From contig CABPSV020000067.1 of the NCBI GenBank assembly GCA_902459845.2, forward strand, positions 7,742 through 35,209: a stretch of DNA of 27,468 nt, read 5' to 3'. Position numbers and translations under genes: made by a program. The notes beneath the pieces were generated by a model. The model saw nothing but the letters and a program-made list of their open reading frames with translations. It was not told the origin of the DNA and made no database searches. Of this stretch, positions 12 through 27,035 are shown one piece after another. The stretch is from Hepatocystis sp. ex Piliocolobus tephrosceles. Lineage: Eukaryota; Apicomplexa; Aconoidasida; Haemosporida; Plasmodiidae. Every line of letters begins with the position of its first letter. The first letter of the stretch is position 1.

Positions 12-33
12 AGATCGGAAGAGCGTCGTGTAG
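12..33. other. Illumina adapter remnant at contig end
   Basis: A 22-base stretch starting AGATCGGAAGAGCGTCGTGT matches the start of the standard Illumina TruSeq adapter (the read-through form). It stands out because the flanking DNA has almost no G or C. The match breaks after position 33, where the sequence turns into TA repeats. Bases 1-11 are therefore also of doubtful genomic origin. This is an assembly artefact and not biology. Confidence 0.95.
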
Positions 34-958: not shown

Positions 959-2209
959 ATGTATATGTTCATATGTTAACGTTTTTGTTAAATCGTTGAT
1001 ACATATCCTACGTAACTTGTATTCATGATAAAATATAAAAAAATTTACATGTTTGCGCGCATGAAAACATACATACATATACATACATACATATACATAC
1101 ATACATATTTCGTTTTTTAATATAAAAAAAATATATACATATTTTTTTTTTTTTTTTTTTTATTTTAGTATAACAATGGTGATTTTAGTGCCATTGACAA
1201 AAAATTAATAAACAAACAAAATATTAGGTTGCTGGCTAATGTAAATCCTGATCAGAATCAGACAAAAATAGGAGAAAACGACTATTACAAGAATGTATTC
1301 AATAATGTAGGTGATTTAGATATACAACCAGAGGATTTTAATACTATTGTTAGTTATTTTGATCTTTACAACAACATTCCAAAACTATTTACAGAAAAAA
1401 ACGAAAAGTTTAAAGATTTATATGAAGGACTATCAAAGTACTTAGTAAAAGAAAAACAAACTGAAGAAGCCACTCAAGTGGTGAAGAGTAATTTAGCGAT
1501 ACAAACACCAATAAAAGAAACACAAGATACAATGCAAAAAAGAAGATCTATATGGAATTTAGGTGATCTGGGTAAAGGAGCTACAGGTAAAACAGAAAAT
1601 AGTAAAGCAACATCTAAAACAGTGGCAAGTGATGCACAAGGATTAGAATCAATAAAAGAAACACAAGATACAATGCAAAAAAAAAGATCTATATGGAATT
1701 TAGGTGATCTGGGTAAAGGAGCTACAGGTAAAACAGAAAATAGTAAAGCAACATCTAAAACAGTAGCAAGTGATGCACAAGGATTAGAACCAAAAAAAGA
1801 AACAAAAGATGTAACTCAAGTAAAAAAATCTATATGGAATATCCGTGGCTCAAGTAACAAAGGAAGTACAAGTAAAACAGCAAATAGTGCAGCAAAATCC
1901 AAAGCAGCGAAGAATGATATTGAGTCATCAGATACAATAAATAACATACAAAATGAAATTAAAAATACAAAGGATTTATTGACTGCACCTGGATTAGGTC
2001 TTAATGCAATTAAAAATAAAATAGCATATATTGAAGTTAATTTACAAGCAGTGAAGGTGGGCATACATTTATTAAAAAAAACAGACGGGAAACAAAATGA
2101 AATTCAGGAAATAACAAAATTATTGGAGTTACTTCAAACATCTACACAAACAATTAATGATAGTGTGAAAATTTTGAATGTGTATATTGAGAAAATGTTA
2201 GAAGAATAA
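852..2209 (+). CDS. Two-exon secreted/exported protein with three 47-residue repeats
   Basis: Proposed join 852-920 and 1169-2209, 369 residues. Exon 1 starts with ATG and encodes 23 residues, mostly hydrophobic after the two-lysine stretch (MFVKTLLKK), a likely signal peptide. The intron 921-1168 runs from GTACAA to a long T tract ending TTTTAG and is phase 0. Exon 2 reaches R43-L-L-A-N47, close to a PEXEL export motif (R-x-L-x-E/D/Q) but with N in the fifth position. Residues 138-184, 185-231 and 232-278 are tandem repeats; the first two are nearly identical and the third has drifted. Each repeat contains a K-S-I-W-N or R-S-I-W-N core. The last 90 residues or so look helical or coiled-coil. 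No transmembrane segment follows the signal peptide. This two-exon layout is typical of Plasmodium exported proteins. I do not recognise the family. The donor is not the commonest form, so exon 1 is less certain than exon 2. Confidence 0.75.
1068..1108. repeat. ACAT-type microsatellite inside an intron
   Basis: Repeated ACATACATACATAT blocks within the proposed intron 921-1168, upstream of the T-rich acceptor tract. Confidence 0.8.
1511..1933 (+). repeat. Three in-frame 141-bp coding repeats
   Basis: Units 1511-1651, 1652-1792 and 1793-1933, each 141 bp (47 codons). By eye, units 1 and 2 differ at three positions only (R/K, a silent GTG/GTA and S/P). Unit 3 keeps the length and the S-I-W-N core but is much diverged. 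This pattern fits a recent duplication or gene conversion of units 1 and 2. Confidence 0.92.
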
Positions 2210-5507: not shown

Positions 5508-6709
5508 ATGGTAAACCTGATATAGTTTAATAATACAATTTTGTGATATAATTTTTTATATTTGATTTTATTGACGTTATATTGTTATGTAATGTTTTAT
5601 ATTTAATTTTATTGATGTTATATGGCTATTATGGACTACTTTAGTTTCATTCTATTATATATATATATATGTACACAAGTAAATTAATATAATTTTTTTT
5701 TATTTTTTAGACGGAAGTTATAAATAAGTTACCTTCTAGAGTATTTTATGGTAAGTTGTTGGATAAGAGTGATCTTAGTTATTACGCTGAAAGTCCACAT
5801 GTACATAATATAGAAAAAAGTATTCAAAATTTCGGACGTGCAAAAGAAATTATGATGATGCTTGAAAAGAATTTAGATATGTTTTATCATAATGAAGACA
5901 CACCTTTTAATAAAAAACATTGTTTCGATGTGAATTTTTGGTTATATAATACGATAAATGAAAATTTAACTAAACCAAAAAGCAATAAGAAATTATTTAA
6001 AGTACTTGATAAATATCATAAAGAGTGGGATGTAATAAATCAATCTAAAGAAATTGATAAAGAAATTATATGCGAACCAAATAGAACTTTAATAGATATA
6101 AAATATTTAAGGGAGGTTAAACATTTATTTGATTATTTTGAAAATTTTGATTATGTCAAAGATGAGGCAAAGAAGAACCCTGATGATGCTTGTAAAATTT
6201 TTTATAAGCCATTAAAAAAATTAATTCCAATATTTTTTAGATGGACAGATATATGTCAACTAGAAGAACCAAATATATGCAATACACATATATCGAATCC
6301 TGGCAATTATACTCCAAGAGCAATGTTAAAGCATGTTAATCTTATTAGTCTTACCTTTTCAGCCTTGGTGAATTCATGCTTTAAACAAGTTATTGATTTA
6401 GTAAAACAATCTGAACAGTTGAAACATAAAACATATGTTATAGTTAGATATAAAAATGAAGCTAAAATGTTAAAATTAATAAAAAAGAAGAGTAGATCAT
6501 TAGCTGAAACAGATGATATGTTAGGAATACTACATGGAGATGATAATAGCTGTGGTTTATTAAGTTATATAGTATGGTTTTTTTACCAAACATATTTATA
6601 TATTAATGAAAATATTATTTTAGTAAGTGCCTTTATGCTAGGAATGTTATTTGTTTTCGGTATTTTTTACCAAGTAAACAATATTTCTAAAAAAAAAAAA
6701 AAAAATTAA
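5508..6709 (+). CDS. PIR-like (Plasmodium interspersed repeat) protein
   Basis: Main exon 5711-6709, preceded by a T-rich tract ending TTTTTTAG. A candidate first exon is the ATG at 5508-5510, followed directly by GTAAAC and with an in-frame stop just upstream. The joined product has 333 residues. Residues 8-14 read L-P-S-R-V-F-Y, like the LPSxxFY start typical of vivax-type PIR proteins. Near residues 72-80, C-F-D-V-N-F-W-L-Y resembles the PIR C-x-x-L-N-Y-W-L-Y block. Further cysteines lie at about 122, 162, 183, 191, 224 and 282. One membrane segment at about 301-321 is followed by a short lysine-rich tail, the usual PIR topology. PIRs are variant antigens, many of them on the infected-cell surface. 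PIR genes usually have three exons; a GTAAAC at 6674, right after the membrane segment, could be the donor to a third exon I could not locate. Family assignment is by motif memory and no search was run. Confidence 0.72.
5551..5623. repeat. Short duplicated block in the PIR intron
   Basis: Two copies (about 5551-5580 and 5594-5623) of a block with the core TTTTATATTTGATTTTATTG and a GACGTTATAT / GATGTTATAT end. They lie between the proposed start-codon exon and the main PIR exon. A TA run follows at about 5658-5670, before the acceptor. Confidence 0.7.
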
Positions 6710-8978: not shown

Positions 8979-9286
8979 ATGAAATTATGTAATGATGCTT
9001 CTATTTTCAACTGGAAAAATTTCATAGCAAAAAATCAAATATGTAGCAATACAGCAAATGTTACAAAAACGATAAAAGAGAAATATAAAAGTAGTATACA
9101 ATTTGCAATGTTTACAACTAAAGTCGTTTTTTTTTTCTTTTTATTCTATTTATTATTACAAGTAAGATATTAATTAAATTTTTAGTATATTGTATGATAA
9201 TACTATGGTGCAACGATTTGATGTTTTATTTTTTTTTTTTCTAGCTATGACCTTTTTATATGCAACAATTTAGTTAGTGCATACCC

Positions 9287-9324
<38 letters not shown>

Positions 9325-10667
9325 TGTGCCTTTATACACACGAATATTATATATTTTTGTTTTACGTTACTTTTGTTATAATTTGTTTACAGAATGAATA
9401 TAACTATTGGAATGATCGTATACCAATTATTAAAAAAATAAAAAATTATACAACATACGCAAGACAACTAGCAGCATATAATGTAAATGAAAAAAGGTAT
9501 AACAATAATATACAAGTAGGTATGAACAAAAATAATGATATGTATAAATTGCGTAAAGGTTTGAGTGGTATTATGAAAGTACCTGACATGGGGAGCACAG
9601 ACAGTGTGTATGATAGAGTATTTAATGCTTATAGTTCTAATACATATACTAATACAAATGAAGGTACACCTCCTAAATATAATAATCAAAATAAAAAACA
9701 AATTGATGCAAGTAAAAGATGTACTTCTTTAAATATGCAACATAAAGGTGAAACTTTCCAAACAAAAAATACACCTAACAATGGTAGAAGGTATGAAAAT
9801 AAAACTAATAAGGCTGAGCACGTATTGGGTAATGATAAAAAGAATGATCAGCATCTAACACAATCCCATCACCAGACGTTGCAAGAAAAAGAAAAATATG
9901 ATAAAAATATAGCGGATAACAAACTGGAAGACTATGAAAGTGTTTTTAAAAAATTTGCAACAAATACAGAAAAAGCAAATGAAAAAAAAACAACTGCTAT
10001 CGCAAAAACAGAAAACACTTTGTCATTAAATGAATGTGACAAATCATATGAAACATTTTTTAAAGCTTGTACTAAAAAGAAAAAAATGGAAGATAATACG
10101 ATACCACCAACTCCTGAGACATCATCCAACAGTTCTGTAAGCCAAAAAGAACAAGCTAAAAAAAACAAAATAACAAAACAAGTATCTGAAAGCAAGAAAA
10201 ATGATTATGTTCCTGAAAGTTTTGAATTTTATGCAAATAGTATGGATGTGTCATTTATAAATATCACACACGAACTAAAAAATATATTAGAAAAGCATCC
10301 TAGAGACTTTGATACTTTAAAATTGCTTGTGTTATATAATATGGAGATTAGTGTTATGAGATACAATTTTCTGAATTTACAAAACAATTTATATAAAATT
10401 TGGATTAGTTTAACAAACCAATATCAACTGGACAATTATTATGCAAATAAATGTTGGTCAAAGATTTATACCAGAATGATAAAAGATCTATTTTATAAGG
10501 AAAAAAAGTATCTGCATAAATTACATTGCACCCTTCAAAATGGAAATTGTTCAAATCATGTATTGAAACGAGTTCTTTTAATATTCGATGAAAAATATAG
10601 AATGCTTTTAAATAACCTGTTCGAAGATTATAAACAAAATTTATATAGAAAAGCAAGGAATTATTAG
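8979..10667 (+). CDS. PHIST-domain exported protein, two exons
   Basis: Proposed join 8979-9161 and 9393-10667, 485 residues. Exon 1 (61 codons) has a polar N-terminus and a recessed hydrophobic stretch at about 41-60, ending before a strong donor GTAAGA. The intron 9162-9392 is phase 0 and ends ATTTGTTTACAG. Exon 2 carries R85-Q-L-A-A89, a PEXEL-like motif with A in the fifth position. Residues about 110-330 are low complexity and rich in K, N, E and T. Residues about 334-485 match the helical PHIST/PRESAN pattern: a run such as YNFLNLQNNLYKIW, then NKCWSKIYTRMIKDLFYKEKK, with the aromatic and tryptophan positions expected of this domain. PHIST proteins are exported into the infected cell and some act at its cytoskeleton. 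The ATG at 8979 is preferred because upstream codons in this frame are poly-F from a T tract. An open read-through from an ATG inside the intron (9324) exists but would skip exon 1. The exact partner is unknown. Confidence 0.78.
9295..9326. repeat. TA microsatellite inside the PHIST gene intron
   Basis: TA run flanked by ACATATA blocks, within intron 9162-9392 and upstream of the acceptor. Similar TA runs occur in the introns at 5511-5710 and 20417-20537. Confidence 0.8.
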
Positions 10668-13934: not shown

Positions 13935-14836
13935 ATGGTAAAACTTATGTTTAATATTTTTAATCTGTTAATTTTGACCAATTTTATATTTATAATTTTT
14001 AATGAACGTCTCATCGTTTTTATCGATAAAAATAAATGTCATAATAAAATTCGAAATTTAGAAGAAATTGATCTGGAATATACAAACTCTAATTCCTGTA
14101 TTAAACAATGGATATATCCTAAAAAATGATTTAAAAGGTTGAGTACTATAGAGAGAGATATAACATACGATTTTGCAAATAAATTAAATAATAACAAATT
14201 AAAAAATTTACGTATTGGTAAGATAGAAGAGCAAATCAAGGATAAATTTGAACAACTCGATTATAAATTAGAACAAATCGAACAAGAATATAAACAAATC
14301 GATCTTAAAGAAAAACAAATAGCAGGAGGATTTGATATACAGATTACAAAATTCTATAATGTAAAAATCAAATGTATGGCAAAAAGAATATTACAGCGTT
14401 TAGTAAATTTATATCAAAGTAATTTAAAAAACGATGACATATATTTTTTTTTAAAAGTTGAAGAATCATGTACAAAATATTTGTTTAAACATATCGAAAA
14501 AAGGCAAAATAGTCAGTATATATATACAATGTTATATTTATCAAAAGTAAAAGAGAAATTGGATAAAGAACTAAAACATAAAAAAATTATAAATGAACAA
14601 ATAAAGAAAGATTCTGCATTAAGAATAGTTCAGCAAATAAGTAATGTACTTTTTTTAAATCCAATAAATTATGAACATTTTGTAGAGATAAATGATGAAA
14701 TCAAATTCGAAAAAAAAAAATGAAAAGAGAAAATAAAAGCAAAATAAATATAATTAATTTATTGAAAAAACGAAATGTTGACGTAAAAAATCTGGTTGTT
14801 AAAATGAATAATCTAAATACTAATATAAGAAAATAA
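13935..14836 (+). pseudogene. Broken member of the R-x-x-Q repeat-domain family
   Basis: One reading frame from ATG 13935 to 14723, interrupted by a single TGA at 14127-14129 (codon 65). Before the stop it encodes a hydrophobic signal peptide (about 1-25) and a canonical PEXEL, R40-N-L-E-E44. After the stop it continues in the same frame with the family domain: M-A-K-R151-I-L-Q154 and L-R230-I-V-Q233, 79 residues apart as in the paralogues at 18030 and 23981. The frame then ends just after an A tract (14710-14720). Directly after the tract, a different frame stays open for 38 lysine- and asparagine-rich codons to a TAA at 14834-14836, which looks like the original C-terminal tail displaced by one missing (or two extra) A. 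It is therefore probably a pseudogene with two lesions. Alternatives are assembly errors, likely for the A tract, or stop readthrough. The piece 14139-14723 alone lacks an ATG start. Confidence 0.8.
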
Positions 14837-16571
14837 AAATTAAAAAAAAAGGAAAATAGTTATAAATAGAATATATTAATATGTAAAAAAAAATGATTTT
14901 TGTAATGATATCGGATTATATGACTTTAATAAAATATTCAGTAACATTAGTCAAAATAATTATGAGACAAAAAAAAAAAAAAAAAAAAAAAAAAATTAGT
15001 AGATCATATACACACGCATACATATATATATACTATTAATAAAATTATGTTTTTGTTATTGATTTGGTTTGCATTTTTTTTTATACATTTGTGTATTTTT
15101 TATATTATACTTTATTTCTGTAAATGTGAATAGTGAAAAATCAAAATAATTAATAATGAACAATGTGTACATTAAAATATTTTTTGTACAGTTAATATAC
15201 TTCGTTATTAATTTTAACTAATTTGTTTAAATAAACTTTTTTTTTTACCTTTTTAAGCACATTCAATATTAAAAATTAATTAACTTTTTTGTGCATGTTT
15301 TTTTTTTTTTTTTTTTTTTAATTTATACAAGTTAATAATAGACACGTTTATATGATCTGTATAAAGAACATATTATATATTTGTGTTACGATTTAATAAA
15401 TGTAACATATAACTAGTCACGAGACATTAAGGCGATAACTATTCAGATTTTATAAAAAATATTTGAATATATTGTTTACTACATATAATTTTTATGCAAA
15501 ATACAAAAAGGTTACAAGTGTTAAATTTTATATTTTGCTTAAGTTGTTTAACACCATTCGAAATGTCTAAAGTGTTATGATAGGTATTCACATGAAGACT
15601 ATGATACTGATTGTTTTGTTATTGAAAATATATATATGGTGTTGTTGTTTATTTTATATCATATGTTTCATTTGAAACAATTATTAATCAAAATTGTGTA
15701 CATTCTTATTTTAAATCTGTACGTAAACAAAAAAAGGAATGAATTAATATAAATTAATTTGAATTAAAAAAATTTCAAATAGAGTTTTAAATGGATTTTT
15801 TTTTTAGAAACATATTAAACTGTAATTGGCGATAACACTTTTTTATATAATAAAAATATATTACTAAAATATATAACATGAGATCAATGAGTAATTCGTT
15901 TTGGTAAAATTATCAGTTCCTAAATTAGAAATTAGTTATGTTTATATAATGAATTGCGTAAAAACTATCAATTACATTATATATACGTTAAAACATATAA
16001 TTTTTTTTATTGTTAAGTATAGTATGAACGGTTGTTACATTGTGTGCTCTTATAAGATAAAATCAGTGGTTTTGATATTGTAATTAAAATTATTTCCTTT
16101 TTTTTTCCTATTTATGTATTTTACTTAGAAAACTTAAATTACATCTACAGCATTGGATGGATATGGTATAAAAAAAAAAGTCGAATGAAAAAAAAATATA
16201 TGCTAATGATTTTAGAATGTATTATATAGGAGTTATGTGAGAATGTCAAATTCATTATGATGGTCATAATAAACAGAAAAAATACGAATTTAGTAATACA
16301 TTAAAATGCTACGTGAATGTATATTTTTATTGGAATTTTTTTTTTTTTTCTGTTTATGACATAAACATTTACATAAATCTTTTTTATTTTTGACTTGATT
16401 TTATTTGAAATTTCTCCATACATTATTGTTTTTTTATTTTAAGTTATTGTGTTGAATAGTAAATAAAAATAAATTAAATATGATTAAGCATTTTAAAATT
16501 TTAGTAAATATTTTATATTTATTTAATGTTTATTTAATAATTATTATTTCAGTATAAAATATTGATTAAAA

Positions 16572-16622
<51 letters not shown>

Positions 16623-17287
16623 GCTTATAAAATATAAAACAATTTGATATATGTGTTAGCTTGACAATCATGTAGAACATTATTGTATTTTTTATAATTT
16701 GTTTAAACGTATATTGTTTTGTTAAATTACAACTTTAAATATGATTACTACTATATAATAATATGTTAGTCATTTTGTTAAATAAAATATTTATAATTAA
16801 CAAACATGTAAAATAAAAATTATAATATGTGTAAAAAAAAATATGTACCTGCATAAAAATTAATATTATTATCATAAAAAAAAATTTCAATATAACCAAA
16901 AATTGAAAAAAATGTATTTACGTAATATATAAAACAAATAAAAAAATTGTGAAGTTCCAAAAAAATCGATGTAAATATAAATCAGTTATATATATGTATA
17001 TATTACTAATAAATATGATAGTGAAATTTTTTTTATTTGTTTTCATATAGTGTCAATCTTATAATTAAATTTTTTGTTGTTCACATATAATTAATAAATT
17101 TATGACAATATTGATAAAAAGATATATATATTTATATATATATTTATTTATGATTTAATTTTTATTTTTACTTGTTTTTTATTTTTACCGATTATGTTTG
17201 TTACATCTCTCTTCTTTTTTTGGTATATATATATCATATAATAAACATCAACAATTTAACACAAATGATTGAATAGCATAATGTCAA

Positions 17288-17350
17288 TACTTTATAACAG
17301 TGCTTTATAACAATGCTTTATAACAATGCTTTATAACAATGCTTTATAAG
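17288..17350. repeat. 13-bp minisatellite (GCTTTATAACAAT)
   Basis: Four to five copies of GCTTTATAACAAT, the first slightly altered (ACTTTATAACAGT) and the last truncated. Located about 0.7 kb upstream of the family gene at 18030. Confidence 0.92.
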
Positions 17351-17720
17351 TTTTAAAAATATAAAAAACATTTTTAATGCATGCTATAGTATTAACCCTT
17401 TTTTTTTTTAAATATAATGGTATAACTATTCTTTTTTTAAGTTTTATTTCAACGTGCAAAACTCAAATGAACCTTACAATAATATAAGCACATAATTAAA
17501 ATAAATAGTAAATAATTATTAATTTAGTATTACGTTTTTTTATGTATATAATTATATTTATAATATTTAAATGCATTTCTAAAAAGATGCATAGATTTAT
17601 ATTTTTTTGGTTTTTTTTTGAATTCATTATTTAATATTTATTAGAAGCTTATTCATTATTTAATAATTGTTTAAAGTTTATTTATTAAATTTTTATTATT
17701 CAGTGTTTGTTTATTCTTTA

Positions 17721-17825
17721 TGCAACGCTGGTCTATGCAACACTGGTCTTTGCAACACTAATTTACGCAACACTAATTTATACAACACTATTTTATACAA
17801 CACTGATTTATGCAACACTGATTTA
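17721..17825. repeat. 15-bp minisatellite (TGCAACACTGATTTA)
   Basis: Seven exact-length 15-bp units over 105 bp, with a conserved CAAC core and variable ends. Because 15 is a multiple of three, one plus-strand frame stays open through the array and would encode pentapeptides of the form [CRY]-N-[AT]-x-L. The surrounding open frame (about 17667-17843) has no ATG. It lies about 200 bp upstream of the gene at 18030. Confidence 0.93.
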
Positions 17826-18029
17826 TGCGTTAATTATTCTTGATCCAACTGTATATAGATAAAATGTCCTAATTAATGTTTTTTTTTTATCGCATTGGTT
17901 ACCTTATTTTTTATCAGTTTTAAAAAAATTAATAGCATTTCATAAATAAATGTAAAAAAAAAAAAAAACAACAAAGAAAAAACATATAAATGTATAGTTT
18001 TTTATACGTATAGTATAAACCTAAGAGCA

Positions 18030-18779
18030 ATGAAAAATTTAAAAATTAATTTTTGTACTTTTATACTATTTACAAAGTTGATAATATTGTTTTACAATTT
18101 ATTTTTTGTAAATAGTGCAACAAATGTTAATAAAGATGTGAAAGCAGATTGTAAGAAAGAGGCACCTAAACACAGTAGTAGTGATTTAAAAAAACTTATT
18201 AAAATAGAACGTAAAGTAGTAAAAAAATACATGAATGACATAAATAAAGGAGAAATTGATTTGAGCATTAATGATATAAAAAAGAAAATTAATGAAATAA
18301 TAAATAAGAAAAAAATAACATATGAAGAGTATAGAATAAATTCAATGGCAAATAGAATATTTCAACGTTTAGAAGACATATACATATATAATGAAAGCTG
18401 TCATGATGTAGATTCGATTTACAAATTAGAAAACTATATAACTGAGAAGTTTATGAAATTATTACAATCCAATAGGTGTACTAAAAATGTTGACACAAAA
18501 AACTTTTTTGAAGTTTTAAGACACCGCATTTTGATAGATGATAATGCTTCCAAATTATTAAGTAAAAATTTAATTACCAAGATGACATGGAGAGTGATTC
18601 AGCGCGCTAGTGATATTATATTTCGCGATTCTTCTTCCTATAGTGACTTAGTAATAGTTGATGATACATCGGAAGATGAAGAACATACGTATGATCAGCA
18701 TAAGAAACAAGATAATTTTAATAAAGAAAAAAAAAAAAATTTTACAGAAATTGGGACCGTCAGTCAAACAAAGGATTAA
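18030..18779 (+). CDS. Secreted protein of the R-x-x-Q repeat-domain family, intact copy 1
   Basis: A single exon of 249 residues, ATG to TAA. The N-terminus (about residues 5-29, FCTFILFTKLIIL and onward) is a clear signal peptide or anchor ending near V-N-S-A. No PEXEL motif is visible after it. Residues 53-115 are charged and helical. The domain has a first core at N-S-M-A-N-R109-I-F-Q112-R-L and a second at M-T-W-R188-V-I-Q191-R-A-S-D, then F-R-D-S-S-S-Y-S-D-L-V. The last 40 residues are acidic, then lysine-rich, like a disordered tail. It is paralogous to 23981-24730 (same length, 249 residues, same core spacing of 79) and to the broken copy at 13935. I do not recognise a named family. 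Hepatocystis is known to have lineage-specific subtelomeric families, but I cannot say whether this is one. Role unknown; probably secreted into the parasitophorous space or the host cell. Confidence 0.85.
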   Translation: MKNLKINFCTFILFTKLIILFYNLFFVNSATNVNKDVKADCKKEAPKHSSSDLKKLIKIERKVVKKYMNDINKGEIDLSINDIKKKINEIINKKKITYEEYRINSMANRIFQRLEDIYIYNESCHDVDSIYKLENYITEKFMKLLQSNRCTKNVDTKNFFEVLRHRILIDDNASKLLSKNLITKMTWRVIQRASDIIFRDSSSYSDLVIVDDTSEDEEHTYDQHKKQDNFNKEKKKNFTEIGTVSQTKD

Positions 18780-20344
18780 TAAGAACAAATTGTGATCATA
18801 TATATGTGATAAATTTATTTTTAATATTTTAATTATGTAATTGGATTAGTAATGATAATTATTTATATAAACATATGTTAAAAAATAATGTTGTATGTAC
18901 ATGTAATTCACATATTTTTACATTTTTTAGATTAACAGTGTTGCTATATATTTTTTTATACACGTTACAATGCTAATGAACACATATATAAATAGTTTGT
19001 ACAATATAAATTGTGTATAATTAAGATTTATAACTTTTAATTTACTTCATGATATATATTTTATACAAATAGTTAAAAGTTTCGTTTTTTATATATGTTT
19101 TTTTGTTATTTTTAAATATACATTATAATATTTTTTTTTTTTTGTCGTAAAATAGTTAATATACTTTTTTTTTGTGTAATGTAAAGCCAAAAATATTATA
19201 TTAAGATGTAGCTTATATAATATATAAATGGTGAACTCGTTACAGTAATGTAAGTGCAAAACAAATAATGTTTCGTTTTTATTTAATATTCGTTTATTCA
19301 CTTTTTAAATAAACTGAACAAAACTCTTGTTTATGTTATGGCTAACAATTTTAATTAACATATTATTTTATATATTTAAACATGTTTTAATAAAAAGTAT
19401 ACATTTTTGTACAATGAAATAAATCACAAAATGTTATTTTAAAGATTAAATATTCAAAAAATTAATGCCAATGCTAATTATATAAATGAATATATTTTGA
19501 AAAAATAAAAAGAATTCTATGAACAATTGAAAGTAGTTTATTTTTTCATTTTTTTTAGGTGTTATTCTTTCTTGGACTATGCTCCTTATTAATTACGGAT
19601 TTATGGTATTGATTTTAGTTTTTGTATATTTTTTTTTTAGATTATTTTATATTATAATATATGTATTGTTTAATAGAACTTAATCTTCATCTATTAGTAA
19701 GAAAGTATTTTAAAACGGATTGTGCTTAGTACATTTAGTATCATAATCAAGTCAAAATATGCAGTACTAAGTTTATATAAAATGGTATTTACAATTAGGT
19801 TTTTTTTTCATTGTTATAAATTAGTATGATAATTCTAAATAACTTAAAATGCTGCTGAAAGCATGTTTTAAAAGTTATACATGCGTTTTTTACGTATTTT
19901 TTTTGGAATTGTTCTAAGCTCTTAAAATAAAATATTTTTAAACAAAAAAAATATAAATTAAAAAAGAAAAATAAATAAAATCGTTTTTTTTGCTTTTATT
20001 TATTAAATATTATAAACATTTTATAAATGCAGTACTTATTTTATAAATACAATACTTGTGGAAACCGATGTTTATATAATTTATGGTAAAACATTTAAAA
20101 AGCACTATAAAGTGGTACCAACTTCTTTTTTTCGTTACTTTTTTTTGTAGTAATCATTAAATAAAATATATTATACAAATTTATTTTTTAATGGTTTTTT
20201 TTTTTTTTTTTTTGGTACATTGTACAATCCTAGGCATAAAAAATAAAAAATTACGTAAGTTAAAATTGCATATATTTTATGTATATGAATAGATATATAT
20301 TTAAAAATATGTTTTAAAATAAATATATAATTAAGGAATTAAAC
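18780..20344. other. 1.6-kb noncoding gap
   Basis: No gene supported. The second copy of the duplicated noncoding block occupies 19575-19950. The remainder is AT-rich with homopolymers. The frame at 19089-19301 (minus) is a low-complexity shadow. Confidence 0.7.
19575..19950. repeat. Duplicated noncoding block, copy 2
   Basis: Same orientation and order of landmarks as 11640-12035: TTATTAATTACGG, CATCTATTAGTAAG, GTACATTTAG, ACTAAGTTTATATAAAATGG then TATTTACAATT, GTTATAAATT, TTTTTTTTGGAATT and AAGCTCTTAAAATAAAAT. Roughly three quarters identical by eye, with small indels. It sits about 400 bp upstream of the signal-peptide exon at 20345. Confidence 0.85.
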
Positions 20345-20436
20345 ATGAAATTATTCTTTTCTATACTAGCAATTAAATTTATTGTGTTTATACAATTGCG
20401 CCTAATTTACTGTAAGGTAATAATACGAGTTTGATT

Positions 20437-20474
<38 letters not shown>

Positions 20475-21155
20475 TTTTTTTAGATATGTATATTATTTGT
20501 GCTAAAATTTTTTACCATTGTTTTGTTTACTTTTTAGGAAGCATCTTATGAATACCCGACATTTGTGAGAAATAACAAAAAAAAGATTCAAACTGATATA
20601 TTAATGAACACAGTAGAAAATTTAAATAAAATACTATTGGACACTTTAAAATTAGAAATCGAAAAAGCAAAAATGTTACGAAATAAAACGACAGTATTTA
20701 AGGAAACGGATTTACTAAACGAAGGATCATTATTAAATACACAATTATTAAGTACATCAACGGAATTAAAACATATTTCGGAAGAATTAAACATTATCTC
20801 TCATATTTTAACAATCGTTGACAAACGTTTTGCAGATAAGATGCTACATTTGTTGAATAAACAAATTTATAATAAAAAAATTACGTTAGATATTTTGTGT
20901 ATGATTAAAAATGAACTACAACTGATTTATGATGAACATGATAATGAAATGGAATATATAACATCCAATAATTTTAAATATACTTTTTTGTATGCATTTA
21001 TGATAATTTTTCAATTATTTGTTAATCCTATAAATATGACAATGGTCATTGGTAGTATTTTACCGACGGTACATGCAAAACATTTAGCTTTACGTATGCG
21101 TGCTAAACGAAAAATGAAAAGAGTCATAAAAAATTTTGTTAATAGCACTAACTAA
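20345..21155 (+). CDS. Two-exon signal-peptide and membrane protein of unknown function
   Basis: Proposed join 20345-20416 and 20538-21155, 229 residues. Exon 1 has 24 codons: M-K-L-F-F-S-I-L-A-I and more hydrophobic residues ending Y-C-K, a convincing signal peptide. The intron 20417-20537 (GTAATA to TTTTTAG, with a TA run) is phase 0. Exon 2 starts E-A-S-Y-E-Y-P. Residues 36-165 are helical, rich in K, L, E and N. A hydrophobic stretch covers about 172-199 and is followed by a strongly basic tail (about 205-223, R-M-R-A-K-R-K-M-K-R). No clear PEXEL is present. The predicted form is a signal-peptide protein anchored near its C-terminus with a basic end. Its region before and within the hydrophobic stretch (N-F-K-Y-T-F-L-Y-A-F) faintly resembles that of the minus-strand gene at 25869 (D-F-K-L-F-T-Y-A-L-F). 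I do not recognise the family. Exon 2 has no ATG near its start, which supports the spliced model. Confidence 0.78.
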
Positions 21156-21489
21156 TACGTAATATATTTTGCAATAAAAATACATATGATTATAACCGTA
21201 ATTATATAAGCTTATTTTTTTAAACAAATGAGTTTTTTTAAGTAGAATAAAATATATATACGTTAATTGGAACGATATGGATAAATAAATCTTTGTTATA
21301 CAAGTTTGTTTAATGTTTCTTAATAAATATAACTAAATAGTATTTTCTTTATAAGCTTTATTTATTGTGTATATGAAAATACTTTTATACTTAACATGTA
21401 TTGTGCATAATCGCATATTCTTGTATTTTTTTAAATATATAATTATAATTTGCATATTTTAAAATGTTGAAAATGATCATTGAAAAATT

Positions 21490-21592
21490 GGTTTTTACAA
21501 TATGGTGGTTTTTACAATATGGTGGTTTTTACAATATGGTGGTTTTTACAATATAGTGGTTTTTTACAACATAGTGGTTTTTTACAATATTG
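21490..21592. repeat. 17-bp minisatellite (GGTTTTTACAATATGGT)
   Basis: Six head-to-tail units. The first three are identical, the fourth has one change and the fifth and sixth have an extra T and further changes, giving a gradient of decay to the right. Confidence 0.93.
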
Positions 21593-22287
21593 TTTTTTAA
21601 TATACATATACAATATTAATAATTAAAATAGTTATATGTAAATATGACATGATATATATATATATATATAATTGTTTATAATGCACAATAATTGATATTT
21701 AAGAGAAGCATACGAATTGCTTTTATAATTTTAATCCACCTGTCTATAAAAAATACATTTACATGTAGCTTTTTTTAAAGTGTACATGCTTAGCCATTAA
21801 ACTTATAAAAACGTTGTTAAAAATCATGTGTAAACTATCACTTCTGACTAATTAAGCATTATATAATTTAGATAATAATTATATAAAAAAACTTTTGCGA
21901 ATCGTGGTTGCACCATTTCAAATTTTTTTTTTACTGGTAACAATTACATTTTAGAAGAAATTATTAAACTGGGAGTAAAAATTTTTAGCATTTTTTATAC
22001 TACTTTCATTGCTATTTATTGATTATCAATTATGCTTTAATTAAGCTTTAATGGTGATACTGTTATGTTATGTATTGAATAGTTTTGTTGCATAAAAAAA
22101 AAAAAAAAAAAATTAATGTTTAATTGGTTGTGTTATATGTGTGTTACTTATTTTAAGTTTTTATGATTACATAAATGCTGTATTTATAGAACTAAAATAA
22201 TTGTGTCAAAAAAAAAATAAAAAATAAAAAAATAGTGACAAGAACGAATGAAGTGCGTGAACTTATCAAAATAAATGCCAATAAAAT

Positions 22288-22320
<33 letters not shown>

Positions 22321-22529
22321 AGATAAAACAGATTGACACAAAATAGAAATGAATGATAAATCGTGCATAAAAAAATAGAGCTTATGTTTTTAAATTAATA
22401 TTAATATCATAAAAACTTAATACCTGTACCCCAATTCAATAACAAAACAACTTCTCTTTGAACAAACAATCAAAATATATATCCTAATAATCCTGCGTTA
22501 TCATCCCCAAATCTCAAAATAAAACTTTA

Positions 22530-22902
22530 ATCTTTTCTTTTGAAAAAAACAGGTCTAAATGTGTTATAAAAACTATACTTAATCATTCCCGAACCATAGA
22601 GGAAAATCAAAACCTTTAACTTTGAAATAACAGAATTGAATAAATCCTAAAAACCTTGAATCCTCAATCAAAAAACAAACACGCATTTAATATGCAAAAT
22701 AAAATAATAATAAATAATATATAATATTATTGCAATAACAATAAAAATTATAATATTTGATTATGTACTTTCCCAAGATTTTTAAAATTTGTTGTAAGGT
22801 TTTTATGATTGATTGAAATATATTTAGAATTGATTAAAGGGTTTTGACTATTGGATGCAGGGTTCTTAAGATTTATTTAGATCTTTGATTCGAAGAAAAG
22901 GG
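22530..22902. repeat. Diverged inverted repeat of C-rich/G-rich, faintly telomere-like DNA
   Basis: Left arm about 22530-22665, right arm about 22790-22902. The reverse complement of the right arm shares ordered blocks with the left: CTTTTCTT..GAA, TCTAAAT, GAACC, TCAAAACC..TTTAA and AAAAACCTT. On the plus strand C is concentrated in the left half and G in the right, unlike the rest of the window. Some stretches (for example ACCTTGAATCCTCAATC near 22653) have a 7-base period resembling decayed CCCTRAA telomere units, but no perfect unit array exists. The spacer (about 125 bp) is pure AT-rich sequence. Confidence 0.65.
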
Positions 22903-23591
22903 TAAAATAATAATTTGTTATTAAATTCAATTAACATTTAATTTATTTAAAATTATAAGCAAATTAAAAAGGCAAAAACAAATTTTTCATACTAGGTTAT
23001 TTAATTGTAAATAATATTGCACTATAATGCAGTTTTATTTTTAGTTATTAATTATTATCTTATGTTAAAAAAAAAAAAATTTACACGTATACTTTTAAAA
23101 TATGTCATTTTTGGCTTTGTACTACTAAGATTGTTTTTGGGCTTACAACAGATAATTATAACATGATAAAATTTAACATTTATTTAATAAAATATATGTA
23201 ATTGTAAATTTGTAAGTAATGTGATGTTGTCATAACTTTAGTAGTTCAAAATGATACATACATATATATAAAAAGGTACTTATTTTACAACAATGCAAAA
23301 TAAAAAATAGCCACCTTATTTAATTTTTTAAAATTATTATTTGTTTTTTGTACTACAATATATATATAGAATTTATAAAATATGTACAAATTTTGTACTA
23401 TCAAGCTTTATAAAGTCAAACATATAAGTCATAATGATTAAATACTAAAACGGTTTTACATGGTTGTTCTACGTTTTTAGTTGTTTAGTTCTAATTTTTA
23501 CATACATGAGTTAGAATGAACAAAAAAAAAAAATTATGTATAGAATTTTTTTTTTTAAATTGCATGTAGAACGTACATCACATTCAAAGGT

Positions 23592-23622
<31 letters not shown>

Positions 23623-23861
23623 GTATATTATAATGATTGTGATTTATTAATTTATAGTATTTTTAATTCGAACATGTTAATTCTGCTTTTTTATCTTATG
23701 TTTTATGCAATTAAAATTTGAAATGCTTCACATATTGGTTTAGATATATATGTACAAAATAAATATACTTGTTTTGATGTTACGCTTTAGTAAATTTAAA
23801 TTTCGAACAATATTATATATTTTTATAAAATAACTACTAAAAGGTTATTAACAATAATTTA

Positions 23862-23905
23862 TGTACATAATTTGTCTACATAATTTGTCTACACAATTTT
23901 TCTAC
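23862..23905. repeat. 13-bp repeat upstream of the third family gene
   Basis: About three copies of ACATAATTTGTCT, slightly diverged. Its translation creates an artificial N-terminal extension of the downstream frame, which is why the later ATG at 23981 is preferred. Confidence 0.85.
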
Positions 23906-23980
23906 ATTCGTGAATTAATAAAAATATTAATAGTAAAAGTTTTCAACTTACACGTACATACAATATATTTTATACTAACA

Positions 23981-24730
23981 ATGAAACTACAACATTTTTT
24001 GTTTTTTAACGCTTTATTATATAGCAGTTGTGTGTTGACCTTTAAAATAAATGGCTCGTTTATACTTACTGATATAAATACACACACCCCTAATAAAGAA
24101 ACAAACTATGTAAAAGCAGCATTTAGCAACAATACAAACTTGCTTTTTACAAATAAAAATGATTTTGTTAAAAGATCTGACAAAATATTTGGTGTAGAAA
24201 GTATGTTATCATTACTATATTTAGTAAAAATGAAAAAACCACGTGAAGAAGATATGCGTAAGTTTATTATACATGTTACGTTTGGTGAATTTATGGATAA
24301 AAAAGAATATGATAGAGAAAATGCTGCAATGATCAGAGATGTCAAAACTTCAATTAAACATTCATTACAAAGTAGGAATATTTCATATGATGAACATAAA
24401 ATTAATTCAATGGTGTATAGAATACTTCAACGTATAATTGATTTTAATGTGTTTTATACTGGAAACTTATCTTTAAATGATTTTATTTCGAAAGAAAGAG
24501 AGCACACAAAATATTGGTTACAACAAATATCGAATGTATTAGGTGATAGGAATTTTAATATACAAGATTATTATATACAAATTAGAGCAAGAATTGAAAA
24601 TGATAGTATAATTAAAAAAGGATGGGATAAAAACAGAATTCATAATATTGCATGTAGAATAATGCAAGTTTTAAGTGATTTATTATTTGTCGACTCTTCT
24701 GGTTATAAGGATTTAGTACAAATTAAATAA
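23981..24730 (+). CDS. Secreted protein of the R-x-x-Q repeat-domain family, intact copy 2
   Basis: A single exon of 249 residues when started at the ATG 23981. The frame is open 40 codons further upstream, but those codons run through a 13-bp tandem repeat, and starting at 23981 puts a hydrophobic signal peptide (M-K-L-Q-H-F-L-F-F-N-A-L-L) at the N-terminus. No PEXEL motif is seen. Residues 85-140 are charged. The domain has a first core I-N-S-M-V-Y-R147-I-L-Q150-R-I and a second I-A-C-R226-I-M-Q229-V-L-S-D, followed by F-V-D-S-S-G-Y-K-D-L-V near the C-terminus. The second core aligns with the first, and the spacing is again exactly 79. Length equals the paralogue at 18030, but the protein ends right after the domain, without the acidic and lysine-rich tail. 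Convergent with the minus-strand gene at 25869. Function unknown. Confidence 0.85.
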   Translation: MKLQHFLFFNALLYSSCVLTFKINGSFILTDINTHTPNKETNYVKAAFSNNTNLLFTNKNDFVKRSDKIFGVESMLSLLYLVKMKKPREEDMRKFIIHVTFGEFMDKKEYDRENAAMIRDVKTSIKHSLQSRNISYDEHKINSMVYRILQRIIDFNVFYTGNLSLNDFISKEREHTKYWLQQISNVLGDRNFNIQDYYIQIRARIENDSIIKKGWDKNRIHNIACRIMQVLSDLLFVDSSGYKDLVQIK

Positions 24731-25868: not shown

Positions 25869-27035
25869 TTAAATAAAACTTTTTTTTTTTGCTAGTGCTG
25901 ACCCTTGTATAATTTGATCTACGGAATCCATGGTTTTTATAATTTTATATATAGAGTGTATACTTGCGCAAATAGGCAGACTTAATAATGGAAATGTGAG
26001 GGAACTAAATCCCAAAAATGCAATTCCAATAATAAATGCAGAACTTAATAATGGATTAAAAAGCGCATACGTAAATAACTTAAAATCTGATTTATATAAA
26101 AAATTTACATTCTGATTTATTTCTGTTTGTATCATTTGTTTAAGTAACATAGTTTTAACTTGTTTATTTATTTTTCCTATGAGTTTAAATATATTTAAAT
26201 ATTTTTTTTTGAATTTGATATTATCCTTTTTAAATATTGGTTGTCCGTGATTAGTTTCTAAATGTAATAAGTTTTTTTTAAATTTTTTTTCATTGTTAAT
26301 TAAAAAGAAATATGTATTCATTAAATGCATTATCGTGTTGTGGTATAATTCAGCATTATCATTATTGTGTTTACTTTTTTGTTTTAATAATTTATAAGTT
26401 TCATTTAAAATTTTTAAATATTCTTCACTGGGAACGACATGTTTAATAAGATCATATATTTCTATTAAATCTTTCTTTTGTAGGTTTTTATTTTTTTGTA
26501 GTATATATTTTATTTGCGATTCATATCGGTTAGTTAATAATGTAATTAATTCATTTTTAACATTGTTTAAATAAATTGATTTTTGTTTTTTATATTTTTC
26601 AATTTCCCATTCACTCTTATATGAGCTATCATTAAAAATTACATTTTGTTCACCATCACTTATCACATCTTGTTCACAATAATTACAAAATTTGTTAAGG
26701 ACATCATATTGTGCTATACCCAAATCATCATTTGTCTCGGGTAGAGAGATATATTGAGCCAGTAATCTACCATATCTTGCATTCCATGTATTTGCTAGAT
26801 AAGCCTAAATAAATAAAAAAAATTAATGTAAAAATGAATAGTATAAATATGTAAATGTTAAATATTATTGTGAATATATTATTCGACATATAGATATAGT
26901 TACTTAAAATATTGTTACGCACAGAAAATATATAAAATAGAGAGTAAACAGTATTAATGTTTTTACTTTGTTGTTATAAGTCCATGTCCATGTAAAGAAC
27001 AGAACAGTAATTATTTTATAAATTATGGCAAACAT
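25869..27035 (-). CDS. Two-exon PEXEL-bearing exported protein with C-terminal hydrophobic region
   Basis: Proposed complement of join 25869-26804 and 26967-27035, 334 residues. Exon 1 (ATG at 27035-27033) encodes 23 residues, M-F-A-I-I-Y-K-I-I-T-V-L-F-F and onward, a signal peptide, then a GTAAAA donor. The intron 26805-26966 is phase 0 and ends TTTTATTTATTTAG. Exon 2 soon reaches G-R36-L-L-A-Q40, a canonical PEXEL (R-x-L-x-Q), so export to the host cell is predicted. A cysteine pair (C-N-Y-C, about 63-66) follows. Residues about 80-260 are lysine- and asparagine-rich helices. A hydrophobic region at about 266-312 may form two membrane segments (split near F-S-S-L-T-F-P), with a short polar tail A-K-K-K-S-F-I. 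This arrangement, with signal, PEXEL and late membrane spans, resembles small exported Plasmodium families such as fam-l and fam-m, but I cannot assign it. The exon-2 frame has no ATG near its start, supporting the splice model. Confidence 0.82.

What the first reader, a model, noticed from the sequence alone, without database searches (positions are those of the whole stretch)
13935..24730. Three-gene secreted family with an internally duplicated R-x-x-Q domain at fixed 79-residue spacing
The genes at 13935 (broken), 18030 and 23981 share a signal peptide and a helical domain with two cores of the form [MA]-x-x-R-[IV]-x-Q-[RVQ]-[ALI]. The two arginines are at 109/188, 147/226 and 151/230, exactly 79 residues apart in each gene although the sequence between has diverged strongly. 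The second core is followed by F or LF, a short S/N-rich turn, Y and a hydrophobic end. Invariant spacing under heavy divergence suggests a fixed fold, perhaps two repeats of one helical unit. It is not a family I recognise and may be lineage-specific.
Basis: partly seen in the sequence, partly recalled or inferred. Interest (0 to 1): 0.8.

Follow-up and report, generated by a model that had tools for sequence, protein, structure and literature searches.

The report
hep1 proteins carry duplicated helical unit
The three genes belong to hep1, a published multigene family of the malaria-like monkey parasite Hepatocystis; what is added here is that each protein is probably two copies of one three-helix unit, each with an almost unchanging glutamate and arginine.

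Summary
A relative in the same assembly (C605) is identical over 476 aa to HEP_00353700, which PMC7425995 lists as hep1, a Hepatocystis-specific family. Fourteen sites lie in the held contigs, 9 intact and 5 broken. R-to-R spacing is 79 in 13 of 14 and 78 in one. The duplicated unit has about 75 residues and three predicted helices, with a conserved Glu in helix 1 and Arg in helix 3. Half-against-half profile comparison gives P 2.4e-8 over 72 columns; 0 of 150 column shuffles and 0 of 150 block shuffles reach its score, though one block shuffle comes close. AlphaFold2 agrees at moderate confidence; no convincing fold match. Database searches found no relative outside Hepatocystis, but missed most hep1 members too, so that absence is weak. 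Function is inferred only: a secreted, fast-changing helical scaffold facing the host. The constant 79 is shared descent with almost no indels, not separate evidence for a fold.

The parts
18030..18779 (+). intact hep1 gene (m1), single exon, 249 aa
   Evidence: own-genome family of 14 sites
18177..18404 (+). m1 repeat unit 1 (residues 50-125), E60 and R109
18405..18656 (+). m1 repeat unit 2 (residues 126-209), E134 and R188
23981..24730 (+). intact hep1 gene (m4), single exon, 249 aa
24167..24469 (+). m4 repeat unit 1, with a longer stretch between helix 1 and helix 2; E73 and R147
24470..24727 (+). m4 repeat unit 2; E172 and R226
13935..14723 (+). broken hep1 copy (m14): frame interrupted by TGA at 14127-14129, open again to 14723
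14052..14066 (+). PEXEL-like RNLEE (R-x-L-x-E) after the hydrophobic N terminus of the broken copy, read by eye; a string search found none near the N terminus of the 9 intact members
14130..14435 (+). m14 repeat unit 1 (open-frame residues 1-102), E8 and R86
14436..14693 (+). m14 repeat unit 2, E111 and R165
25869..26804 (-). neighbour: PEXEL-bearing multicopy gene, probably hep2 (RLLAQ)
5711..6709 (+). neighbour: pir gene (Plasmodium_Vir, E 1.1e-18)
9222..10667 (+). neighbour: PHIST/PRESAN gene (E 1.4e-9)

Best explanation
The genes are hep1 genes of Hepatocystis sp. ex Piliocolobus tephrosceles. Shown by sequence: a hydrophobic N terminus; a domain made of two tandem copies of a unit of about 75 residues (helix 1 with a conserved Glu, helix 2, helix 3 with R-I-x-Q; helices predicted); and in some members a charged, sometimes tandemly repeated tail. 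The duplication is older than the split of the 14 sites. Inferred: the conserved Glu and Arg pair inside or between units and hold a fixed helical frame, while helix surfaces, the helix 1-2 stretch of unit 1 and the tail diverge. Inferred: blood forms secrete the protein into the vacuole or, without a PEXEL, beyond it into the host cell, where it works as a binding scaffold facing the host; the lysine-rich tail of at least one member could place it at the red-cell periphery, as such repeats do in Plasmodium.
For: Identity: the C605 relative is identical over 476 aa to HEP_00353700, which the S7 Fig legend of PMC7425995 names under hep1 with that length (passages); another database hit, HEP_00519600, is 248 aa. 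Family: queries from five members; four recover the same 14 sites and the 13935 piece 12 of them. Duplication: half-profile match P 2.4e-8 over 72 columns, with a narrower cut P 2.5e-7 over 29 columns; controls. R109, I110, E134 and R188 invariant in 14 of 14, E60 in 12 of 12 that have the column. Helix order. Unit tree: the 14 second units form one group, support 0.959. Conservation has helical periodicity in predicted helices 2-5. Blood expression and hypervariability: PMC7425995 and PMC12187015 (passages). Lysine-rich repeats and the red-cell periphery: abstract of PMC5207086; the C605 tail has a 19-residue period and net charge +28.
Against: Nothing here shows export, binding or function. 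Of 11 N termini examined (9 intact members, HEP_00519600 and the 13935 copy) only the broken 13935 copy has a PEXEL-like motif. Most members have acidic tails or none, so the tail cannot be the general function. The AlphaFold2 models have pLDDT of only 72 and 61; in the second the stretch around the first Glu is disordered, and the first has an extra short helix in unit 2. Predicted helices 1 and 6 show no conservation peak near 100 degrees. The first-unit profile places only 9 of 14 second units above the best unrelated frame. dN/dS estimators disagree.
Confidence: 0.6

Rival explanations
1. The two cores are one helical motif that arose twice by convergence or by drift in AT-rich coding sequence, not by duplication.
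For: The window is very AT-rich, and K/I/N/E-rich helices look alike; shuffles that keep blocks of 7 columns reach a score of 41.5 against 44.2 observed, so much of the signal is in the core.
Against: 0 of 150 column shuffles pass 19.4 and the reversed profile scores 9.6; the second-unit profile ranks 14 of 14 first units above all 422 background frames; the match spans 72 columns with the Glu helix in register; the helix order repeats.
Confidence: 0.07
2. hep1 is a variant-antigen family whose main role is immune evasion at the surface of infected cells, like pir.
For: Published hypervariability of 3 of 16 hep1 genes in one population and 1 in another, and that paper's own suggestion (PMC12187015 passages); NG86 dN/dS 0.81-1.42 among the ten pairs of five members (one of them broken) against 0.42-0.67 for three pir pairs; a pir gene nearby.
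Against: YN00 gives 0.43-1.08 for nine of those ten pairs and failed for one, so positive selection is not shown; after residue 50 only one of 15 sequences has a 19-mer hydrophobic enough to suggest a membrane anchor; few copies.
Confidence: 0.25
3. hep1 stays in the parasitophorous vacuole or at its membrane and acts on the parasite side; it is not exported.
For: Hydrophobic N terminus but no PEXEL-like motif in 10 of 11 N termini examined.
Against: PEXEL-negative exported proteins are known (recalled); lysine-rich repeat tail in the C605 member.
Confidence: 0.3
4. hep1 is a very diverged PHIST (PRESAN) branch.
For: A PRESAN gene lies in the same window, and both kinds are helix-rich and secreted or exported (PHIST part recalled).
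Against: No PRESAN match in the Pfam scan of the three genes; profile comparison with one and with three Hepatocystis PRESAN domains gives probability 0.2 and 0.1 percent.
Confidence: 0.06

Closest known systems
hep1, Hepatocystis-specific family 1 (PMC7425995)
   Same: Single-exon genes, about 250 aa, hydrophobic N terminus, multicopy with broken copies; one member of the group identical to HEP_00353700.
   Different: Nothing found that sets them apart; they are members. The internal three-helix duplication is an added description that I did not meet in the passages I read; the published alignment figure was not available.
hep2 (same paper)
   Same: Multicopy, and near hep1 on three held contigs, C64, C355 and C528, if the gene at 25869-26804 is hep2.
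   Different: PEXEL-bearing; no profile similarity between hep1 and that gene (probability 0.1 percent).
PHIST / PRESAN (PF09687)
   Same: Secreted or exported protein family of Plasmodium-like parasites (recalled), present in this window.
   Different: No sequence or profile match.
pir (PF05795)
   Same: Multigene neighbour in this window.
   Different: No Pfam match for the hep1 genes.
KAHRP and other exported proteins with lysine-rich repeats
   Same: The C605 member has a lysine-rich tail of 19-residue repeats; PMC7425995 reports a KAHRP-like repeat region in hep1.
   Different: Only the tail is comparable; neither it nor the helical domain was compared with KAHRP here.

Membership tests
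hep1 | Groups with a named hep1 member | tested here: met
   C605 member identical over 476 aa to HEP_00353700, named as hep1 in the S7 legend; gene 18030 finds C605 at E 1.6e-8 and gene 23981 at 4.6e-24. The 13935 piece as query does not list C605 but finds 11 other sites.
hep1 | Single exon, about 250 aa | tested here: met
   18030 and 23981: 249 aa in one frame; the seven other intact ones 247, 254, 254, 258, 273, 324 and 476 aa. No transcripts were available.
hep1 | N-terminal signal peptide | tested here: inconclusive
   Most hydrophobic 19-mer is N-terminal in 7 of 9 intact members; no signal-peptide predictor here.
hep1 | 12 genes plus 4 pseudogenes | tested here: inconclusive
   9 intact and 5 broken sites in the 12.4 Mb held; HEP_00519600 lies on a 927-base contig, which is shorter than the held contigs whose lengths I saw.
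hep1 | No relatives in other sequenced genomes | tested here: inconclusive
   Three searches of 5.8 billion proteins returned only the window's own proteins and two HEP_ proteins. But they also missed the other intact hep1 members of this assembly, and one search scored only its best 7993 candidates, so the absence elsewhere is weak.
hep1 | KAHRP-like repeat region | tested here: inconclusive
   Charged repeats in the tails of two members, C605 and C352; not compared with KAHRP itself; of the two intact window genes one has a 40-residue acidic tail and one has none.
PHIST/PRESAN | PF09687 match | tested here: not met
pir | PF05795 match | tested here: not met
hep2 | N-terminal PEXEL and sequence similarity | tested here: not met
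   no R-x-L-x-[EQD] near the N terminus of the 9 intact hep1 members; no profile match to the probable hep2 gene; the broken 13935 copy alone has such a motif
RAD, fam-a/b/c/d | Sequence or fold similarity | tested here: inconclusive
   No Pfam family over its cut-off and no clear fold match, but these families were not compared one by one.

The most novel reading that the evidence does not exclude
The hep1 domain is a lineage-born fold: a tandem pair of three-helix units, each fastened by a conserved Glu-Arg pair, invented or remodelled beyond recognition in Hepatocystis and expanded as its own host-facing toolkit where the large Plasmodium families are reduced.
Probability: 0.2. Interest if true: 0.55.

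Novelty: already known. Interest (0 to 1): 0.35.

Why it matters
The two papers describe hep1 as a family of unknown function without known relatives, with some of its genes among the most variable of the genome. A defined domain with an internal duplication and four fixed Glu and Arg positions gives boundaries for expression and structure work, a better profile for searching new haemosporidian genomes, and a way to separate constrained frame from variable surface in population data.

Tried and rejected

Positive selection was considered. NG86 over whole genes gives 0.81-1.42 for ten hep1 pairs and 0.78-1.14 for ten hep2-like pairs; YN00 gives 0.43-1.08 and 0.45-0.98, with one failure in each set. 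NG86 over the core alone gives about 0.5 to 1.55 for nine hep1 pairs. In a genome this AT-rich the estimates are unreliable, and no claim is made. In the background test of the first-unit profile, the two best background frames turned out to be pieces of broken hep1 copies and the third a low-complexity frame. An intron was considered for the 13935 copy; the reading frame and the match to relatives run on directly past the stop, so an in-frame stop is the simpler reading (by eye). Comparison of hep1 with the window gene at 20538 gave nothing.
Full report
What the window is. The window is C64:7742-35209 of an assembly held as 611 contigs and 12.4 Mb; the ten contigs whose lengths I saw are over 10 kb. 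It is AT-rich and holds a pir gene and a PRESAN gene and a PEXEL-bearing multicopy gene. A protein encoded in the same assembly (C605, 476 aa) is identical to HEP_00353700 of Hepatocystis sp. ex Piliocolobus tephrosceles, and both lie on a 10,221-base contig. So this is very likely the published Hepatocystis assembly or a filtered copy of it.

The family. Gene 18030 finds 14 sites in the assembly; gene 23981 and the C352 and C277 members as queries find the same 14 sites, and the open piece of the 13935 copy finds 12 of them. Nine are intact (247 to 476 aa) and five broken. HEP_00353700 is named in the hep1 alignment legend of PMC7425995, and 476 aa is the length given there (passages). That paper describes hep1 as 12 single-exon genes plus 4 pseudogenes of about 250 aa with a signal peptide, no relatives by HHblits and a KAHRP-like repeat region. 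The window genes therefore belong to hep1. Three searches of 5.8 billion proteins returned only the window's own proteins and two HEP_ proteins; since they did not return the other intact hep1 members either, this is weak support for absence elsewhere. Two papers in the library hold hep1, hep2 and Hepatocystis together (with other phrases gave no further hep1 paper by title, and its other listings were not opened). In the passages I read of those two the internal duplication is not mentioned. I saw passages, not whole texts, and not the supplementary figures.

The observation. R109 and R188 and their counterparts are 79 apart in 13 of 14 sites and 78 in the C164:10.3k member. This stretch has almost no change of length: R109 to E134 is 25 in 14 of 14 and E134 to R188 is 54 in 13 of 14. 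By contrast E60 to R109 varies from 49 to 78 in the 12 sites that have E60. The fixed spacing is thus shared descent, and the variable part lies in the first unit. R-[IV]-x-Q holds in 6 of 6 cores of the window genes; over the family Q is kept in 13 of 14 first cores and 12 of 14 second cores.

The duplication. A first cut of the family alignment into halves around the cores gave probability 93 percent, P 2.5e-7 over 29 columns. With limits taken from the predicted helices the score is 44.2, probability 95 percent, P 2.4e-8 over 72 columns, with Glu on Glu and the R-I-x-Q cores in register; the global version gives 91 percent. Column-shuffled controls: mean 10.0, maximum 19.4, 0 of 150 reach it. 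Shuffles of blocks of seven columns: mean 19.4, maximum 41.5, 0 of 150; the near miss shows that much of the signal sits in the core. The reversed profile scores 9.6. A profile of second units ranks 14 of 14 first units above all 422 background frames (211 frames of this window and fetched loci, and their reversals); the reverse profile ranks 9 of 14 second units above the first unrelated frame. In the unrooted unit tree the 14 second units form one group (support 0.959), so the duplication came before the family spread.

Structure. AlphaFold2 on gene 18030, with only the three window sequences in the alignment, gives pLDDT 72 and pTM 0.67 and helices at residues 47-72, 80-94, 100-121, then 127-150, 156-168 (followed by a short one at 171-176) and 179-199 (renumbered to the full protein). 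R109 and R188 are each the tenth residue of their helix. The model of gene 23981 is weaker (pLDDT 61, pTM 0.61) with matching later helices but a disordered stretch where the first Glu lies. Coordinates were not given to me, so symmetry and E-R pairing are inferred. Fold searches gave no convincing relative.

How it may work. Shown by sequence: hydrophobic N terminus, two-unit domain, a first unit of variable length, variable tails. Tails differ: 234 residues with a 19-residue period and net +28 (C605), 104 residues with an acidic period-4 stretch (C352), shorter tails, or none. From papers: three members highly expressed in blood, one correlating with rings (PMC7425995); some members hypervariable in wild populations (PMC12187015); lysine-rich repeats suffice for localisation to the red-cell periphery in Plasmodium (PMC5207086, abstract). 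Inference: a secreted scaffold that faces the host, with a fixed frame and a changing surface. Export is uncertain, since a PEXEL-like motif is seen only in the broken 13935 copy among 11 N termini examined.

Selection. Among the ten pairs of five members (one broken), NG86 dN/dS is 0.81-1.42 and YN00 0.43-1.08 with one failure; ten hep2-like pairs give 0.78-1.14 by NG86; three pir pairs 0.42-0.67. This says fast change, not proven positive selection.

Verdict. A real and largely correctly seen feature of a known family, with a better-drawn repeat unit. The family itself is already known; the duplicated three-helix architecture is the added part.

Noticed in passing
window 14127-14129 and the C164 copy in L014 (7146-7148, minus strand): Two broken hep1 copies that are not nearest relatives have an in-frame stop (TGA and TAG) at the same place, eight residues before the conserved Glu of unit 1. 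Chance or a shared weak point; unexplained.
   Followed up: partly
window 12-33: Looks like Illumina adapter sequence (recalled): probable assembly artefact.
   Followed up: no
window 25869-26804 minus: PEXEL-bearing family with 8 matches at 7 sites; the five N termini looked at hold R-x-[LM]-x-[QE]; probably hep2, and near hep1 on C64, C355 and C528.
   Followed up: partly
window 9222-10667; C200:18346-18693; C277:4069-4413: Three PRESAN sites over cut-off in the assembly, while Table 2 of PMC7425995 lists two Phist genes.
   Followed up: partly
window 1169-2209: Open frame with tandem repeats (about 47 residues by eye) and an RLLAN motif near its start; no Pfam match and no second copy in the assembly.
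   Followed up: partly
window 20538-21155: Open frame of 205 aa with a hydrophobic segment towards the C terminus; no Pfam match and no second copy in the assembly.
   Followed up: partly
L010 2389-3207: One hep1 member carries short E/N/S-rich repeats after its hydrophobic N terminus, another place where the family gains repeats.
   Followed up: no
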